Assembly (NCBI RefSeq): GCF_019891175.1
Contig: NZ_CP072600.1
Span: 5,270,001-5,334,000 of the forward strand
Direction: 5' to 3'
Length of the DNA: 64,000 bases
From: Leptothermofonsia sichuanensis E412
GTDB lineage: Bacteria; Cyanobacteriota; Cyanobacteriia; Leptolyngbyales; Leptolyngbyaceae
Shown here: in pieces, positions 611 to 47,142 of the stretch
How positions within the stretch are numbered: position 1 is the first letter of the stretch
Layout of the letters: every line of letters starts with the position of its first letter
Made by a program: the position numbers and the translations under genes
The notes under the pieces: generated by a model
Databases searched by the model: none
What the model was told of the DNA's origin: nothing
What the model saw: only the letters and a program-made list of their open reading frames with translations

Positions 611-1825
611 ATGGATATTTATCGGGCTGCTATTCGTCCAATTCTATTCTCCGGATTCAATACCGATCCGGAGTGGCTTCACCAACAATCGTTAACGATC
701 CTGGGCTGGCTTGATCGCAATCGCGATCGCCTCCCCAATCCCTGGATCTGCAACCAGCTACGGCAGACGTACAGATGTTCCGATTCCCGTCTGGCACAAA
801 CCCTCTGGGGACTCCATTTCCCCAACCCAATTGGACTGGCTGCCGGGTTTGATAAAGATGGAGTTGCCTCTGGCATCTGGGCTGACCTGGGATTTGGGTT
901 TGCCGAATTGGGCACCGTCACCCTGAAAGCGCAACCGGGTAACCCCCGTCCCCGTTTGTTTCGTCTGCCCCTGGATCGAGCGGCACTCAACCGGATGGGA
1001 TTTAACAATCAGGGAGCAGAGGCGATGGCAGCAAGGTTGAAGGCACGGTGGGGAAACCGGGTAGAGAACCGGGAACCGGGAACCGATGGCTCCTCCCCAA
1101 CCGCCGACTTCTCTTCCCTCTCTCCTCTCTCCTCTCTCCTCTCTCCTCTCTCCTCTCCCCTTGGCATCAACCTGGGCAAATCTAAAGTTACCCCTCTGGA
1201 GGAAGCCGCGGCAGATTATCTGGGTAGTTTTAAGCAGCTAAAAGACTGGGGTGATTATTTCGTGGTCAACGTGAGTTCGCCCAACACACCAGGATTGCGA
1301 TCGCTGCAAGCCACTGAAAACCTGGAACCCATCTTAAGCACACTCCAGACAGAAAACCAGGGACAGAAACCTCTGCTGCTCAAGATTGCACCCGATTTAG
1401 CCTGGGAGGAAATTGCAGCCGTTCTTGACCTGGCCCAGAAATACCATCTGGCGGGCATTATCGCCACCAACACCACCATTGCCCGGGATGGACTCAAAAC
1501 TGCCATCCTGAAAGCAACAGGCAACCCTATCCAGGAGGAACCTGGTGGCATCAGTGGCGCACCCCTGCGCCAGCGCTCTACAGAAGTCATTCGCTTTATC
1601 TATCAGAAAACCCGGGGTCAACTACCAATCATCGGCGTTGGGGGCATTTTTACGCCCGCAGATGCCTGGGAAAAAATCACGGCTGGTGCCAGCCTGATCC
1701 AGGTCTACACGGGCTGGATTTATGAAGGACCCTGGATGGTGCGGGAAATTCTGACAGGACTGTTGCAGAAACTGGAGGAACGAGGCATGGGCGCGATCGC
1801 AGAAGCGGTTGGGAAGGAGGCGTAA
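611..1825 (+). CDS. pyrD: Dihydroorotate dehydrogenase (quinone), class 2, with repeat-derived insertion
   Basis: PyrD oxidises dihydroorotate to orotate in pyrimidine synthesis, passing electrons from FMN to quinone at the membrane. Visible family signatures are [12 protein letters not shown] (FMN binding, residues about 76-87), [27 protein letters not shown] (with the catalytic Ser region), KIAPDL, IATNTT and IGVGGI plus QVYTG near the C-terminus. The protein is 404 aa, while class 2 enzymes are usually about 340-370. The excess is a Ser/Pro/Leu-rich stretch at about residues 151-184, encoded by GGGAACC-type and CTCTCCT-type repeats and placed just before GINLGKSK. Function is secure, and the insertion is the odd feature. 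Confidence 0.95.
1109..1160 (+). repeat. Heptanucleotide tandem array (CTCTCCT)n inside pyrD
   Basis: At least five consecutive copies of the 7-mer CTCTCCT (with a few edge variants) lie within the pyrD reading frame. They are preceded at about 1063-1085 by GGGAACC-type repeats. Because 7 is not a multiple of 3, gain or loss of one unit would shift the frame. Confidence 0.9.
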
Positions 1826-10185: not shown

Positions 10186-10322
10186 CTCAGATCCCTGGTA
10201 TAGCCCTTTTCAAGGGTGTGAGGTACCTCACTCAATTAAGAAACGCTATATCTGGTTGAGTTTAGCTAAGGTTGAATCATACTTCCAGACACCGGGGATC
10301 TTGACCACCTACGAAGTTGCCC
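10186..10322. repeat. CCGGTGTCTGG-family repeat interrupted by a MITE
   Basis: The flanks read CAGATCCCTGGTA and, after the inserted MITE, TCTGG; further on come CCAGACACCGGGGATCTTG and GAAGTTGCCCA. Two uninterrupted relatives at 48666-48765 and 62757-62852 read CAGATC(T/C)CCGGTGTCTGG followed by CACCGGGGATC and a GGCTTCCA(A/G)GTTGC tail. Here the matching site has been split by the MITE. Confidence 0.75.
10199..10250. mobile_element. MITE-1: minimal IS630-related MITE with TA duplication
   Basis: A 48-bp element (10201-10248) is flanked by TA on both sides. It starts TAGCCCTTTTCAAGGG and ends AAGAAACGCTA, and its halves meet at GAGGTAC. It is the smallest member of the family also seen at 15693 and 29277. 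Confidence 0.85.
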
Positions 10323-12394: not shown

Positions 12395-12451
12395 TATGGG
12401 AGGGAGTGTGAGGTACAGAGAGGGTACTCCGCACCCTGGAAAAGGGATATA
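12395..12451. repeat. Decayed MITE of the TGAGGTAC family
   Basis: It keeps GTGTGAGGTACAGAG, the central ACTCCGCACCCT and an AAAAGGGATATA end, all matching the MITE at 29277-29372. The other end is degraded. Confidence 0.65.
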
Positions 12452-15159: not shown

Positions 15160-15187
15160 AAAAAAAATCCCCAGCCTGTGCCGGGGA
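15160..15187 (-). terminator. Intrinsic terminator after the 45-aa gene
   Basis: On the minus strand TCCCC-GGCACAGGCT-GGGGA is followed by a run of T. It lies eight bases beyond the TGA at 15194-15196. Confidence 0.75.
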
Positions 15188-15193
15188 CTTAGA

Positions 15194-15331
15194 TCAGGGT
15201 GCATCTACCACTTCACTCTTCTTCCAGATGGGTAATGCTTCAGGAAGGCTTACTGCAAATTCATCTGAGTTTACAGTGTCTTCATCAAGCCTGGGGGTTG
15301 TGCTGAACAGTTGTATGAATTCGAACGACAT
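15194..15331 (-). CDS. Putative 45-aa protein with repeat-derived N-terminus
   Basis: A short frame runs from ATG 15331 to TGA 15194. The C-terminal part (RLDEDTVNSDEFAVSLPEAL followed by PIWKKSEVVDAP) has the composition of a real, acidic small protein, and a strong terminator follows immediately. The first 12-13 residues (MSFEFIQLFSTTP) are encoded by a dispersed repeat whose copy at 21270-21352 would read similarly in this frame. An in-frame TGA sits two codons upstream of the ATG. So either a repeat replaced the original 5' end, leaving a pseudogene, or it supplies the start. No family recognised. Confidence 0.45.
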   Translation of the reverse strand: MSFEFIQLFSTTPRLDEDTVNSDEFAVSLPEALPIWKKSEVVDAP

Positions 15332-15376
15332 TTCAATTCATACAACGCTCAATTCATAGCCAAAATCAGCAACGCC
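15293..15376. repeat. ATGAATTGGAACGAAG family repeat, copy a
   Basis: A diverged copy: GTATGAATTCGAACGAC, ATTTCAATTCATACAACG, CTCAATTCATA and CAAAATCAGCAACGCC. Fuller copies lie at 20756-20837 and 21270-21352. The GTATGAATT/AATTCATAC arms form a hairpin. Confidence 0.8.
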
Positions 15377-15692: not shown

Positions 15693-15787
15693 TATAGTGT
15701 TTCTCAATTGAATGAGGTACGAGGATGTGAGGCATAGTGGGGTGCTCCGCACCCTCACTGTACCTCACACCCTTGAAAAGGGCTATA
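15693..15787. mobile_element. MITE-2 of the TGAGGTAC family
   Basis: A 95-bp element including TA on both sides. Left end TATAGTGTTTCTCAATTG then TGAGGTAC; central GGTGCTCCGCACCC; right end CTGTACCTCACACCC followed by AAAGGGCTATA. Compared with MITE-3 it is in inverse orientation. Confidence 0.85.
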
Positions 15788-20755: not shown

Positions 20756-20837
20756 TGGATGGTACTGAATAGGAGTATGAATTGGAACGAAGTTTCAATT
20801 CATACAACACTTAATTCATAACCAAAATTAGCAATCC
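20756..20837. repeat. ATGAATTGGAACGAAG family repeat, copy b
   Basis: GGTACTGAATAGGAGTATGA leads into the ATTGGAACGAAGTTTCAATT hairpin, followed by CAACACTTAATTCATAACC and AAAATTAGCAATCCC. Confidence 0.85.
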
Positions 20838-21269
20838 CTTAGGGTAAAAGGAAAAGCCGGAGTGAAACTAAGCTAAACCCTGTCCATAGACAGTTTTGCA
20901 GGTTCTCTCAGAAGAATCTTCAAGTTACCAGTCGGACATAGGTTAAAGATGGTCTTCAAAGATGAATTATCGTGCTTTGCTACCTGGGACAAACATCCGT
21001 TAAAAAGCAACCCTGATTGAAGTGGATTGGTGCGATCGCACGAATTGCTTACCCTTCAAACAGTAATGCAGGATCATTTGCAATAGCACTGCTAACTGGA
21101 CCAATTTAAAAACTGACCCAAATTAACTGGAACTCTAACTATTATCAGGTTCTAATTAACTCATTTCAGTGGTCACCGTATTCATAGCGGTAGCCATCCA
21201 GGCAGAAAAACCTATATCATTCTGGATTTTGGATTGGCATTGTTGCATGAAAGTGAAAGATGGTCGAAT

Positions 21270-21352
21270 GGGGTGGTGCTGAATAGCAGTATGAATTGGA
21301 ACGAAGTTTCAATTCATACAACGCTCAATTCATACCCGAAATCAGCAACGCC
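21270..21352. repeat. ATGAATTGGAACGAAG family repeat, copy c
   Basis: GGGGTGGTGCTGAATAGCAG leads into the same hairpin as copy b, then CAACGCTCAATTCATACCC and GAAATCAGCAACGCC. Nearly identical to copy b across the hairpin. Confidence 0.85.
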
Positions 21353-21516: not shown

Positions 21517-21549
21517 TATAGGGTTTCTCAATTGAGTGAGATACGGGGA
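21517..21549. repeat. Orphan MITE end
   Basis: TATAGGGTTTCTCAATTGAG followed by TGAGATACGGGG matches one end of the TGAGGTAC MITE family. No second end is found nearby. Confidence 0.6.
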
Positions 21550-28895: not shown

Positions 28896-29367
28896 AGTAA
28901 CGACCTCCCCTCAAACAGAATTAATTCGATTGAGGATGATGAAGATGATAATTGAGTTGAAGCGATTCTGCTGACTTTGTGACAGAGAATTCCACAATCA
29001 CCCACTCTCACAAAGCCTCTTCCTCTCACCAATGATTTGGAACTGCCATATAGGGTCTTCTTTCTGGATGAGGTACATCTTATCTGTTAACTCAAGGGTT
29101 CTAACTCAAGAGTTCTCCAGCTATGCATGTCCCTCACTGGATTCAAAAACACTATAAAACAGATTGTAATACGCTGGCAGAGTCGTGGGAGGTTTCACTT
29201 CGTGTAACTTTGCGATCGCATCTCCATGCCAGTCCAGATCAGCCTCCCAACAGATTAAGAATTTCAACCGCCGCTATATAGCCCTTTTCAAGGGTGTGAG
29301 GTACAGTGAGGGTGCTCCGTGCCCTCACTGTACCTCACACCCCCGTACCTCACTCAACTGAGAAACG
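28896..29367. other. Intergenic region with MITE-3 and an orphan MITE end
   Basis: No gene. An orphan end TATAGGGTCTTC...TGAGGTACATC lies at 29049-29079, and the full MITE-3 at 29277-29372. Confidence 0.55.
29049..29079. repeat. Orphan MITE end
   Basis: TATAGGGTCTTCTTTCTGG then ATGAGGTACATC, a degraded single end of the TGAGGTAC MITE family. Confidence 0.55.
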
Positions 29368-29372
29368 CTATA
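29277..29372. mobile_element. MITE-3: best-preserved member of the IS630-related family
   Basis: A 96-bp element including the TA pairs. Left end TATAGCCCTTTTCAAGGG with GTGTGAGGTAC; a nearly perfect inner palindrome around AGTGAGGGTGCTCCGTGCCC; right end TACCTCACTCAACTGAG followed by AAACGCTATA. The two ends differ from each other in the same way as the two ends of the deleted IS at 35268-35705. Its right end supplies the stop codon of the kinase gene. Confidence 0.88.
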
Positions 29373-30909
29373 GAGGCGGATATGAGTCATTTTCCAGCTC
29401 TTCAGAGACTTTGGGTTTGAGTTTTTCCAATTCTGCTTTTAACAGGTCTTTGCTGAAGGTTGGTTTGCCCACAGACACCAGAGAATGAGTGGTGATTGCC
29501 CATTGCTTTAACTGGGAGCACTGGGAGGCGTTAATGCCAACGGCGATCGTGTGCGCACAAGGCTCAGGATTTTCCAGCGCAAACAGGAGAACCTGGTATT
29601 GCCCTTTCTCCGCCAGCAGGCGGAGCATTTCCTCCCCGTAGGAGGTTTTGAGATCCAGATAGCAGGGCATCCACCGGGGTCCCTGGTCTTGCCCCTGGAC
29701 ACGACTACAAACAGCAGTAATCCACAGCAGCATGGGATGGGGCTGCATGGCGCAGAGAAAATTTTTGTAAATCTTGTTATAGAGCCGATTAACTTGAAGG
29801 TTCTGGATCTCTTTTTGAGGCAGCATTACCCAGATAGCGGGCATTGCCCCCTTACTGGTGGTAATTTTCTGAGCAAAGACGATTTGAGCGACAGGCTTGC
29901 TGGCGGGCCAGGTGATTGACCGGCAAATTTCATCAACAAAAGGGAGAGTTCTATCAGAGGTTTCCGGGAAATCTAATTTCTTGGGAAGCACTCCACTGAT
30001 GCGAGCGCTAATATCTCGACTCGCGCTGTAGCGCTGGTCCAGAGGCTCCAAGGCTCTCAAGACCTCAGATATCGACTGGGGACGAGACTGGGGAGATTTT
30101 TCTAAACAGCTCATCACCAAGTTTTCCAGAGCCTTGGGGATTTTCAGGCTGGGATTTGCAGTTGAGAAACTGCGCGGCGGCTGAGAGTGATGCGCTCGAT
30201 ACCAGGCACCAAAGGAGTGGGTTTCAGCCTGGAGGGGAATCTTGCCGGTCAACATTTCAAACATCATGACACCCAGGCTATAGATGTCGGAGCGGGCGTC
30301 CAGTTCCCGACCTTCCATCTGCTCAGGCGAAGAATAAGCCAGCGTTCCCATGAAAGAGTTGGTCTGTCCACTATCTTCCTGAATTAGCTTGGCAATGCCA
30401 AAATCCAGGATCTTGACCAGTTCTCCGAAGCTGGCATCCTGGCTGACCAGAATGTTGCTGGGTTTAATATCCCGATGGATGATGGGACAAATTCTATTGT
30501 CAATCTTCAATCCTTGATGGGCAACCTGCAACCCCAGACAAATCTGGCGAGACAGGCTGAGGAATCGGAGCAGCGGAATCGGATGGGCGTTAATAATTTC
30601 GCTCAGACTTTGCCCTTTCAAATATTCCATCACGTAGAAAGGAATATCTTCATCATCTACACCATAGTCAGTGACACGGACGATGTGAATTGTTTTTTGA
30701 CCCAGTTGAGCGCAGGTGCGGGCTTCAGCTTTGAAGCGATCGCGCATTTTCTTATTCAGCAAGGCATGGGATAGGAATTTAACCGCAATGACTCCACCCA
30801 GGAGGACATCCTCTGCCTGGTAAACTCTTCCCATTGCTCCTTTGCCAACCAGTTCTACAATCTGGTAACGGTTTGAGAGCAGCCGTCCAATATAGGGATC
30901 TGTTGTCAT
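29368..30909 (-). CDS. Serine/threonine protein kinase with C-terminal cyanobacterial extension
   Basis: A 513-aa Hanks-type kinase. The glycine loop is VGKGAMGRVY (22-30), with Lys44 in AVKFL, catalytic HRDIKPSN at 145-152, DFG at 169-171, SPEQ and SDIYSLGVMMFEML. The kinase domain ends near 290. The remaining 220 residues form a soluble domain (FVDEICRSITWPASKP, IWVMLPQKEIQNLQ, LLALENPEP-like segments) with no transmembrane helix, so the enzyme should be cytoplasmic. The last codons (SYPPL, then TAG) overlap MITE-3, so the natural C-terminus may be cut or altered. The catalytic set is complete; targets are unknown. Confidence 0.9.
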   Translation of the reverse strand: MTTDPYIGRLLSNRYQIVELVGKGAMGRVYQAEDVLLGGVIAVKFLSHALLNKKMRDRFKAEARTCAQLGQKTIHIVRVTDYGVDDEDIPFYVMEYLKGQSLSEIINAHPIPLLRFLSLSRQICLGLQVAHQGLKIDNRICPIIHRDIKPSNILVSQDASFGELVKILDFGIAKLIQEDSGQTNSFMGTLAYSSPEQMEGRELDARSDIYSLGVMMFEMLTGKIPLQAETHSFGAWYRAHHSQPPRSFSTANPSLKIPKALENLVMSCLEKSPQSRPQSISEVLRALEPLDQRYSASRDISARISGVLPKKLDFPETSDRTLPFVDEICRSITWPASKPVAQIVFAQKITTSKGAMPAIWVMLPQKEIQNLQVNRLYNKIYKNFLCAMQPHPMLLWITAVCSRVQGQDQGPRWMPCYLDLKTSYGEEMLRLLAEKGQYQVLLFALENPEPCAHTIAVGINASQCSQLKQWAITTHSLVSVGKPTFSKDLLKAELEKLKPKVSEELENDSYPPL

Positions 30910-35267: not shown

Positions 35268-35705
35268 TACTGCCCTTTTCAGTGGGGTGAAGAGCTTTTT
35301 TTCTTACGTGTCAGATTCAAACGCTGTATTACGCGACACATCGTCGGTTCACTCACCCTGACCTTCAGTTGTTGGTTCAACGCATCACAGAGTTCGCCTA
35401 AAGTCATGTCGCTTTTGGCTTCGACCAGGGATTGGACAACCTGTACCTGTTCTGCATTCAGGGTTCTCGGACGTCCTGGCCTGGGTTTTGGGTCAAGCGC
35501 ACCCGTCTCTCGATATTGCTTCAGCAACTTGGTGACAAAACTCGGAGCCACCCGAAACCGCTTGGCCAAATGACGTTGCGAAATCGGCTCATTCTCATAG
35601 GTTTCAATGATTTTCTGGCGCAGGTCAACAGAGTAAGCTTTCATCAATTTGTCACATCTTTATTTACGTTTTTAAGCGTACCTCATAGTTTTGAAAAATG
35701 CTATA
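35268..35705 (-). mobile_element. Internally deleted IS630-type element
   Basis: A 438-bp element bounded by TACTGCCCTTTTCAGTGGGG at the left and an end reading (inward, minus strand) TATAGCATTTTTCAAAAC then TATGAGGTACGC at the right. The only gene is the helix-turn-helix part of an IS630-family transposase, and the catalytic DDE half is missing. Both ends resemble the two ends of the MITEs at 10199, 15693 and 29277, each with its matching side. It looks like an intermediate between a full IS and the MITEs. Confidence 0.7.
35279..35647 (-). pseudogene. IS630-family transposase, N-terminal half only
   Basis: 122 residues, MMKAYSVDLRQKIIETYENE..., hold the helix-turn-helix (SQRHLAKRFRVAPSFVTKLL), then PRPGRPRTLNAEQ and a second winged-helix-like part ending QRLNLTRKKK. 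In complete IS630 transposases a catalytic DDE domain follows, often through a frameshift at the AAAAAAA run present here. In this copy the frame ends 6 codons later, inside the left terminal repeat. It may still bind the element's ends but cannot catalyse transposition. Confidence 0.85.
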
Positions 35706-46822: not shown

Positions 46823-47142
46823 GTCAGGTTGGGTTGCAACCCTCTGTGGCAGGAGAGAGGAAAGAGGAGAGAGGAGAGAGAAGAGAGGAAAGAGAAGAGA
46901 GGAAAGAGGAACGGAAGAAGGAGGGATCCGGTACAGTCTGCTGGAAATACGCAGATTGTGACTATAACCAGTGCAAGTTATCTATAATTGCTCTAATATC
47001 ATCACGGCGGTTTTCAGACCATTGCCACCTAGCGAATGTCTGCATTCGACAAAACAGCAGATTTATGGGGCAGACACTAATGAAAATTGCTGGAATGGAC
47101 TCTAATTCCAGTGGTCACTACTAAATTTACCGGATTACCCGA
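46823..47142. other. Intergenic region with heptamer-type repeat tract
   Basis: No real gene; a 96-codon open frame here is driven by the purine repeat. The tract at 46852-46925 is described separately. The rest should contain the promoter of the M16 peptidase gene. Confidence 0.5.
46852..46925. repeat. GGAGAGA/GGAAAGA heptamer array
   Basis: About ten degenerate purine-only 7-mer units (GAGAGGA, AAGAGGA, GAGAGAA). Same family as the tracts after pyrD and trmFO. Confidence 0.88.

What the first reader, a model, noticed from the sequence alone, without database searches (positions are those of the whole stretch)
35268..35705. IS630-type element and MITEs share both asymmetric ends
The right end of the element, read inward, is TATAGC-A-TTT-T-TCA, then a variable stretch, then TGAGGTACGC. 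The right ends of the MITEs at 10199, 15693 and 29277 give TATAG(C/T)GTTTCT(C/T)A...TGAGGTAC; MITE-3 aligns without gaps at about 21 of 30 positions. The left end TACTGCCCTTTTCAGTGGGG matches the other, different MITE end (TATAGCCCTTTTCAAGGG) at about 20 of 28. The side-specific correspondence argues that the MITEs arose from this IS lineage. The element at 35.3 kb has lost its DDE half and looks like an intermediate. A full-length relative elsewhere in the genome would be the mobilising source.
Basis: partly seen in the sequence, partly recalled or inferred. Interest (0 to 1): 0.72.

Follow-up and report, generated by a model that had tools for sequence, protein, structure and literature searches.

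The report
IS630 remnant and its orphaned MITEs
A cyanobacterial chromosome carries many tiny jumping-DNA copies whose ends match a common family of transposons (IS630), next to one broken transposon of that family; the supposed second matching end of the broken transposon is really a piece of its gene, so the pattern is a fairly ordinary case of leftover parasites whose engine was not found.

Summary
The right end of the element (35705 inward, TATAGCATTTTTCAAAACTATGAGGTAC) is a genuine IS630-type terminus, and the MITEs carry the same kind of end. The left end (35268-35295) is not a terminus: on the other strand it is the start of the DDE-domain frame (ALHPTEKGS), directly after the A7 frameshift run and homologous to that place in relatives. 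The element is a 5' remnant cut off about nine codons into OrfB, not a two-ended deletion derivative. The side-specific match fails: the right end is 22/28 to MITE C and 21/28 to MITE G, and 18 relatives with both ends show no such preference. The wider claim survives in weaker form. The MITEs (147 C ends in this genome, 16 in another genus) have IS630-type ends; one insertion shows a clean 2-bp TA duplication and two more are consistent with it. A complete 1,020-bp IS630 element with both ends of this type exists in another cyanobacterium (26/28 and 23/28 to the G end). No complete element with the C end was found in 388 genomes, nor a partner among the IS630 loci scanned here. Best reading: IS630-family MITEs, probably orphaned in this genome, beside one decayed relative.

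The parts
35678..35705 (-). OrfA-proximal terminal repeat of the IS630 remnant, TATAGCATTTTTCAAAACTATGAGGTAC, with TA at its outer edge
   Evidence: 26.3 bits on end profile; 22/28 to MITE C and 21/28 to MITE G
35279..35647 (-). OrfA of an IS630-type transposase (HTH DNA-binding half, 122 aa)
   Evidence: PF13565 E 1.4e-14, PF01710 E 1.8e-6; relatives in other genomes 38-75% identical
35296..35302 (-). A7 run (T7 on + strand) where the frame changes between OrfA and OrfB in most relatives read
10199..10250 (+). 52-bp MITE, C end fused to G end without the central hairpin
15693..15787 (-). 95-bp MITE (C end at 15787, G end at 15693)
29277..29372 (+). 96-bp MITE with central hairpin; its G end supplies the stop codon of the kinase ORF 29368-30909
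12407..12451 (-). decayed MITE copy: C end (23/28 to MITE C) plus part of the central hairpin
21517..21544 (+). lone MITE G end (26/28), no partner seen in the 161 bases read
29049..29156 (.). 108-bp MITE-like element of the same end type, probably a different subfamily (ends 18/28 and 22/28 to MITE G)

Best explanation
The feature at 35.3 kb is the 5' remnant of an IS630-family (Tc1/mariner-like) insertion sequence: one true terminal repeat, the whole HTH frame, the A7 frameshift run and nine codons of the DDE frame, then a break. The MITEs are non-autonomous IS630-type elements. They end in TATAGC..TTnTCA.....TGAGGTAC repeats of the same subgroup and insert at TA with a 2-bp duplication (one clean empty site, two supporting). 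They were presumably cut and pasted in trans by an OrfA-OrfB frameshift transposase of this subgroup (inferred). In this genome no complete transposase with such ends was found, so the MITEs are probably orphaned. The remnant is a sibling of the lost source, not its demonstrated parent and not a deletion intermediate.
For: The frame after the A7 run reads ALHPTEKGS, homologous to the OrfB starts of 28 of 35 relatives' loci; coding profile 21.5 bits against end profile 14.2. Eighteen relatives with both ends are about 1,016-1,041 bp long and follow one end consensus, TAnAGCnnTTTnCAnnCTAGTGAGGTAC; MITE C and G ends score 25.5 and 34.5 bits on the end profile. L307 in G321: complete 1,020-bp element, ends 23/28 and 26/28 to MITE G, DDE_3 domain E 9.5e-32. 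Four G192 copies: end 26/28 to MITE G next to OrfB. Empty sites: the G013 insertion L193 gives flank-TA-flank against several uninterrupted copies of another repeat; L157 agrees but for one base. Copy numbers: 147 C ends in G000 and 16 in G013, reversed-pattern control 0.
Against: The left segment's 20/28 match to the MITE C end is more than random sequence usually gives, so a dual role is not excluded by statistics alone. The coding profile was built from segments chosen for likeness to the window peptide, and the end profile held three spurious ends. The only clean empty site is in G013; the one G000 case (L077) is weak, with about 10 of 15 bases matching on the left. The HTH match of L307 is below Pfam's cut-off (31.9 against 33.7 bits). 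No complete IS carrying the C end was found. Mobilisation in trans is inferred. Not every IS630 copy of the genome was scanned.
Confidence: 0.84

Rival explanations
1. One reading: the 35.3-kb element is an internally deleted IS630 that kept both asymmetric ends and is the intermediate from which the MITEs arose.
For: 20/28 match of 35268-35295 to the MITE C end, rare by chance. The right end matches MITE C at 22/28, above the 46 relatives' ends compared (at most 21), though L307 equals it (22).
Against: The left segment is OrfB coding DNA in the right place and frame and scores low as an end. No side preference in 18 relatives. The element is single copy, so there is no sign that it moved.
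Confidence: 0.06
2. The MITEs are moved by the resident multi-copy IS630 family of this genome (L033/L129 type, ends TACAGCGGTTCTCAGATGAATAAGCCAC and TACAGCCGTTATTGATTGAGTAAGCCAC).
For: It is the only resident IS630 family found with MITE-like ends (20/28 and 19/28 to MITE G). Ten copies score identically and two compared copies are 100% identical over 1,044 bp, which suggests recent activity.
Against: The inner motif is TAAGCCAC instead of TGAGGTAC; OrfA is only 44-45% like the remnant; other lineages match far better (L307, 26/28).
Confidence: 0.12
3. The shared ends are convergence or chance.
For: IS630-type ends are short and share a loose core (TAYAGC).
Against: Reversed-pattern controls are 0 against 285, 147 and 121 matches in this genome; TA duplication; a complete IS with near-identical ends.
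Confidence: 0.02

Closest known systems
IS630/Tc1/mariner family, e.g. ISY100 of Synechocystis PCC 6803 (PMC2170065, abstract and passages seen)
   Same: HTH plus DDE transposase, terminal repeats bound by the N-terminal HTH half, insertion at TA with TA duplication
   Different: The remnant has lost the DDE half and the distal end; most relatives read change frame at an A-run between OrfA and OrfB, while that paper describes a single transposase gene
Cyanobacterial MITEs: Nezha (only citations of it seen) and the MITEs of Anabaena sp. 90 (PMC3542288, passages seen)
   Same: Small, multi-copy, hairpin-forming; the Anabaena sp. 90 MITEs also showed no evident similarity to the repeats of ISs in their own genome
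   Different: Here an IS630-type source is indicated by end sequence and TA duplication in other genomes; Nezha was not compared letter by letter
Complete IS630 element L307 in an unnamed cyanobacterium (G321:C133)
   Same: Both ends of the MITE type (26/28 and 23/28 to the G end), HTH-like OrfA and DDE_3 domain
   Different: Does not carry the C end (22/28 and 19/28); lies in a genome of another family of the class

Membership tests
IS630 insertion sequence (the element at 35.3 kb) | IS630-type HTH DNA-binding half | tested here: met
   PF13565 and PF01710 above cut-off
IS630 insertion sequence (the element at 35.3 kb) | DDE_3 catalytic domain | tested here: not met
   recognisable homology stops about nine codons into OrfB; not among the Pfam matches of the ORF
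IS630 insertion sequence (the element at 35.3 kb) | two terminal repeats | tested here: not met
   one real end (26.3 bits); the other is coding DNA. It is a remnant of the family, not a complete member
IS630-derived MITE (the short repeats) | terminal repeats of an IS630 subgroup | tested here: met
   25.5 and 34.5 bits on the profile of relatives' ends; L307 26/28
IS630-derived MITE (the short repeats) | 2-bp TA target duplication | tested here: met
   one clean empty site (L193, G013), one off by a base (L157, G013), one weak (L077, G000), out of 60 insertions tried; the others had no uninterrupted counterpart among the loci held
IS630-derived MITE (the short repeats) | many dispersed copies | tested here: met
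   147 C ends and 121 G ends in the genome within 3 mismatches
IS630-derived MITE (the short repeats) | cognate complete IS in the same genome | tested here: inconclusive
   none among the own-genome IS630 loci scanned (best 20/28); large families were sampled by representatives, not scanned copy by copy
IS630-derived MITE (the short repeats) | movement in trans by the transposase | not testable with these tools
   needs an assay

The most novel reading that the evidence does not exclude
The MITE is a modular element built from one widespread IS630-type end (G) and one lineage-restricted end (C), with an internal hairpin that is an inverted copy of the inner C end. Four positions (24, 58, 73, 86) switch together between two subfamilies, and hybrid copies exist, as if paired ends and hairpin arms were re-matched during replication or followed a change in transposase specificity; another genus carries the same C end with a different G end.
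Probability: 0.15. Interest if true: 0.5.

Novelty: new member of a known kind. Interest (0 to 1): 0.3.

Why it matters
It links a high-copy cyanobacterial MITE family to a definite transposase subgroup and gives a concrete complete candidate (L307) whose transposase could be tested on the MITE ends. It also shows how a coding segment of a truncated transposase can be mistaken for a second transposon end.

Tried and rejected
A complete IS with the C end: of 388 class genomes 5 had a match (147, 16, 1, 1, 1 matches). The loci of the three genomes with one match (L148 of G037, L189 of G374, L190 of G233) showed no transposase-like reading frame beside such ends, judged by eye from the translations. 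Plasmids: no match to the MITE; OrfA relatives in 28 records, all below 60% identity; one weak DNA match. Viral contigs: no exact match to the C-end pattern. Rfam at gathering cut-offs: 2 matches in the window, neither over a MITE. Empty sites in the same-genus genome G001: homologous stretches found but too diverged or broken at contig ends for an exact junction. Covariation of the central hairpin as proof of selected structure: 94.5% of cells paired and 20 cells changed on both sides against 10.5 in shuffles, but 17 of the 20 come from one pair (24-58), and the number of pairs with two-sided change is not above shuffles (228 of 500), so it is weak. IS630 loci of G013 and G037 (18 loci; G002 had no match): none with an end of 22/28 or better.

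Slips and rows dropped: one of the five sequences (L193) was given wrong coordinates and is not used. Of 48 distinct MITE copies of 92-96 bp listed, 45 were aligned (L061, L076 and L203 left out as irregular). In one search, 46 ends were used: from the list I removed three spurious ends (L109 distal, L110 distal, the first L111) and duplicates (L082, L083, L085, L087), and added L101 distal. In one search, 28 of 35 loci gave a usable OrfB start; L087, L091, L108, L109, L114, L115 and L116 did not. In one search six G013 copies are counted twice, once from each end. A lone end in L133 that one search lists is a half MITE, not an IS end.

Full report
Setting. The window is positions 5,270,001-5,334,000 of a single-contig 6.43-Mb genome. 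The six OrfA relatives with named records are all cyanobacteria; that the genome is a cyanobacterium too is inferred. The 438-bp feature has one copy in the genome.

The element. On the minus strand an ORF of 122 codons matches IS630-type HTH domains (HTH_32 E 1.4e-14, HTH_Tnp_IS630 E 1.8e-6). Within the genome the next relatives are 44-45% identical. Of 144 genomes searched, the window's own included, 40 have a match at E 1e-20 or better. Most relatives read OrfA, change frame at an A-run and continue into OrfB with a conserved start such as TLHPTEKESERVQ (L094) or TFHASEKDTERVQ (L102). The window has the same run (T7 at 35296-35302) and in the next frame ALHPTEKGS, then no recognisable homology. 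The peptide is 7 of 9 identical to L094 and L098, and the DNA is 20 of 26 identical to L090. A profile of OrfB starts (25 distinct segments from 28 of 35 loci) gives the segment 21.5 bits, the best place in the window by 9.8 bits. A profile of 48 transposon ends, three of them spurious, gives it 14.2 bits, against 26.3 for the right end. Against this stands its 20/28 match to the MITE C end, which simulated sequence reaches 0.025 times per window; I take this as coincidence found by searching for likeness.

The right end. Eighteen relatives with both ends are about 1,016-1,041 bp long and follow one consensus, TAnAGCnnTTTnCAnnCTAGTGAGGTAC. Ends of one element agree at 17-24 of 28 positions; ends of different elements agree at 17.1 on average, and 12% of 1,017 pairs reach 21 or more. 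The window end matches MITE C at 22 and MITE G at 21. For C, the 46 other ends of that comparison reach at most 21, but L307, found later, also reaches 22. For G, 12 of 46 ends reach 21 or more, up to 24, and L307 reaches 26. So membership of the subgroup is clear, a specific parent-child link is not.

The MITEs. The C end occurs 147 times in this genome with up to 3 mismatches (reversed control 0), 16 times in G013 of another genus, once in G037 and once each, at 3 mismatches, in two more of 388 genomes. A general end pattern gives 285 matches here and 32 in G013, control 0. Of 75 rows read from loci, 54 are from this genome: 43 paired (one of 52 bp, 42 of 81-96 bp) and 11 without a second end by the script's rule; two G013 copies are also 52 bp, as is the window copy at 10199, which is not among those rows. 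The long form carries a central hairpin that is an inverted copy of the inner C end (MITE-3 folds as DNA at -30 kcal/mol, z -8.5). In G013 the C end is the same but the G end differs (TATAGCAGTTTTCACCTGAGTGAAGTAC). Four positions (24, 58, 73, 86) tend to change together (GCCG 17 copies, ATTA 17, other combinations 11 of 45). All ten G013 copies aligned are ATTA, so relatedness explains part of this.

Insertion. Sixty insertions were tested by joining flanks with one TA. A 52-bp copy of G013 (L193) lies in another dispersed repeat whose uninterrupted copies match the joined flanks across the junction. A 95-bp copy of G013 (L157) lies in the same repeat and agrees but for one base. One G000 copy (L077) has an uninterrupted counterpart (seen in L131 and L036), but its left arm is short and poorly matched. 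The other insertions had no counterpart among the loci held. This fits the 2-bp TA duplication of the IS630/Tc1/mariner family, as shown in vitro for ISY100 (PMC2170065, abstract and passages).

The source. No IS630 locus scanned in this genome has MITE-type ends of its own; the best is the resident L033/L129 family at 20/28, while several loci merely have a MITE nearby. The genome gave 150 scored DDE_3 matches, 149 over the cut-off; large identical families were sampled by representatives and some singletons fetched. The G end, in contrast, occurs within 3 mismatches in 55 of 388 genomes. Fifty loci were examined (30 from that search and 20 fetched stretches). One, L307 in G321, is a complete 1,020-bp element flanked by these ends (23/28 and 26/28 to G), with an OrfA 52% identical to the window OrfA over 115 residues and a DDE_3 domain (E 9.5e-32); its HTH match is just below Pfam's cut-off. 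In G192, four fetched contig ends carry the end TATAGCGTTTCTCAATCTAGTGAGGTAC (26/28) next to OrfB, and L285 and L286 show the same arrangement with a related end. Twenty-one of the 50 loci show a pair of ends 94-149 bp apart without a transposase match; 25 have no second end at the threshold used, among them L268 with the exact G end. MITEs of this general type thus seem frequent in cyanobacteria.

Mechanism. Shown: end class, truncation of the local element, copy number, and in one clean case TA duplication. Inferred: cut-and-paste in trans by a subgroup transposase now missing or undetected here. In print: six full-text searches of the open library showed no description of this family in their listings, but I saw only citations of the Nezha paper and did not look it up, and Elhai et al. 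2008 is not held, so I make no claim of absence. Papers seen: PMC2170065 abstract and passages; PMC3542288, PMC10969869, PMC11448079, PMC3733652 and PMC2246112 passages only.

The TA-duplication claim was lowered from three sites to one clean and two supporting, and the best explanation from 0.85 to 0.84; counts of paired loci, element lengths and identity ranges were corrected, and L307's 22/28 match to C was added.

Noticed in passing
window 29368-30909 and 29277-29372: The G end of MITE-3 provides the TAG stop codon of a Ser/Thr protein kinase ORF (PF00069), so the insertion may have changed the C terminus.
   Followed up: partly
window 15294-15376, 20756-20838, 21270-21352: An 83-bp dispersed repeat (GTATGAATTGGAACGAAGTTTCAATTCATAC...AGCAACGCC), also at more than 20 places in the same-genus genome G001 and a target of MITE insertion in G013; perhaps another small mobile element.
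   Followed up: partly
window 15160-15210: Rfam match to NsiR1 (nitrogen stress-induced RNA 1), 56.8 bits.
   Followed up: no
G000 genome-wide: 150 scored DDE_3 (IS630-type) transposase matches in several families, some with dozens of copies of equal score: an IS630-rich genome.
   Followed up: partly
L189, L149, L151: Other cyanobacteria carry IS630-type ends beside unrelated hairpins (by eye; one recalls a GTAG-type REP, from memory), suggesting that such MITEs repeatedly pick up hairpins.
   Followed up: no
window 1108-1161 and 46851-46909: Two CT/GA-rich low-complexity runs in opposite orientation.
   Followed up: no
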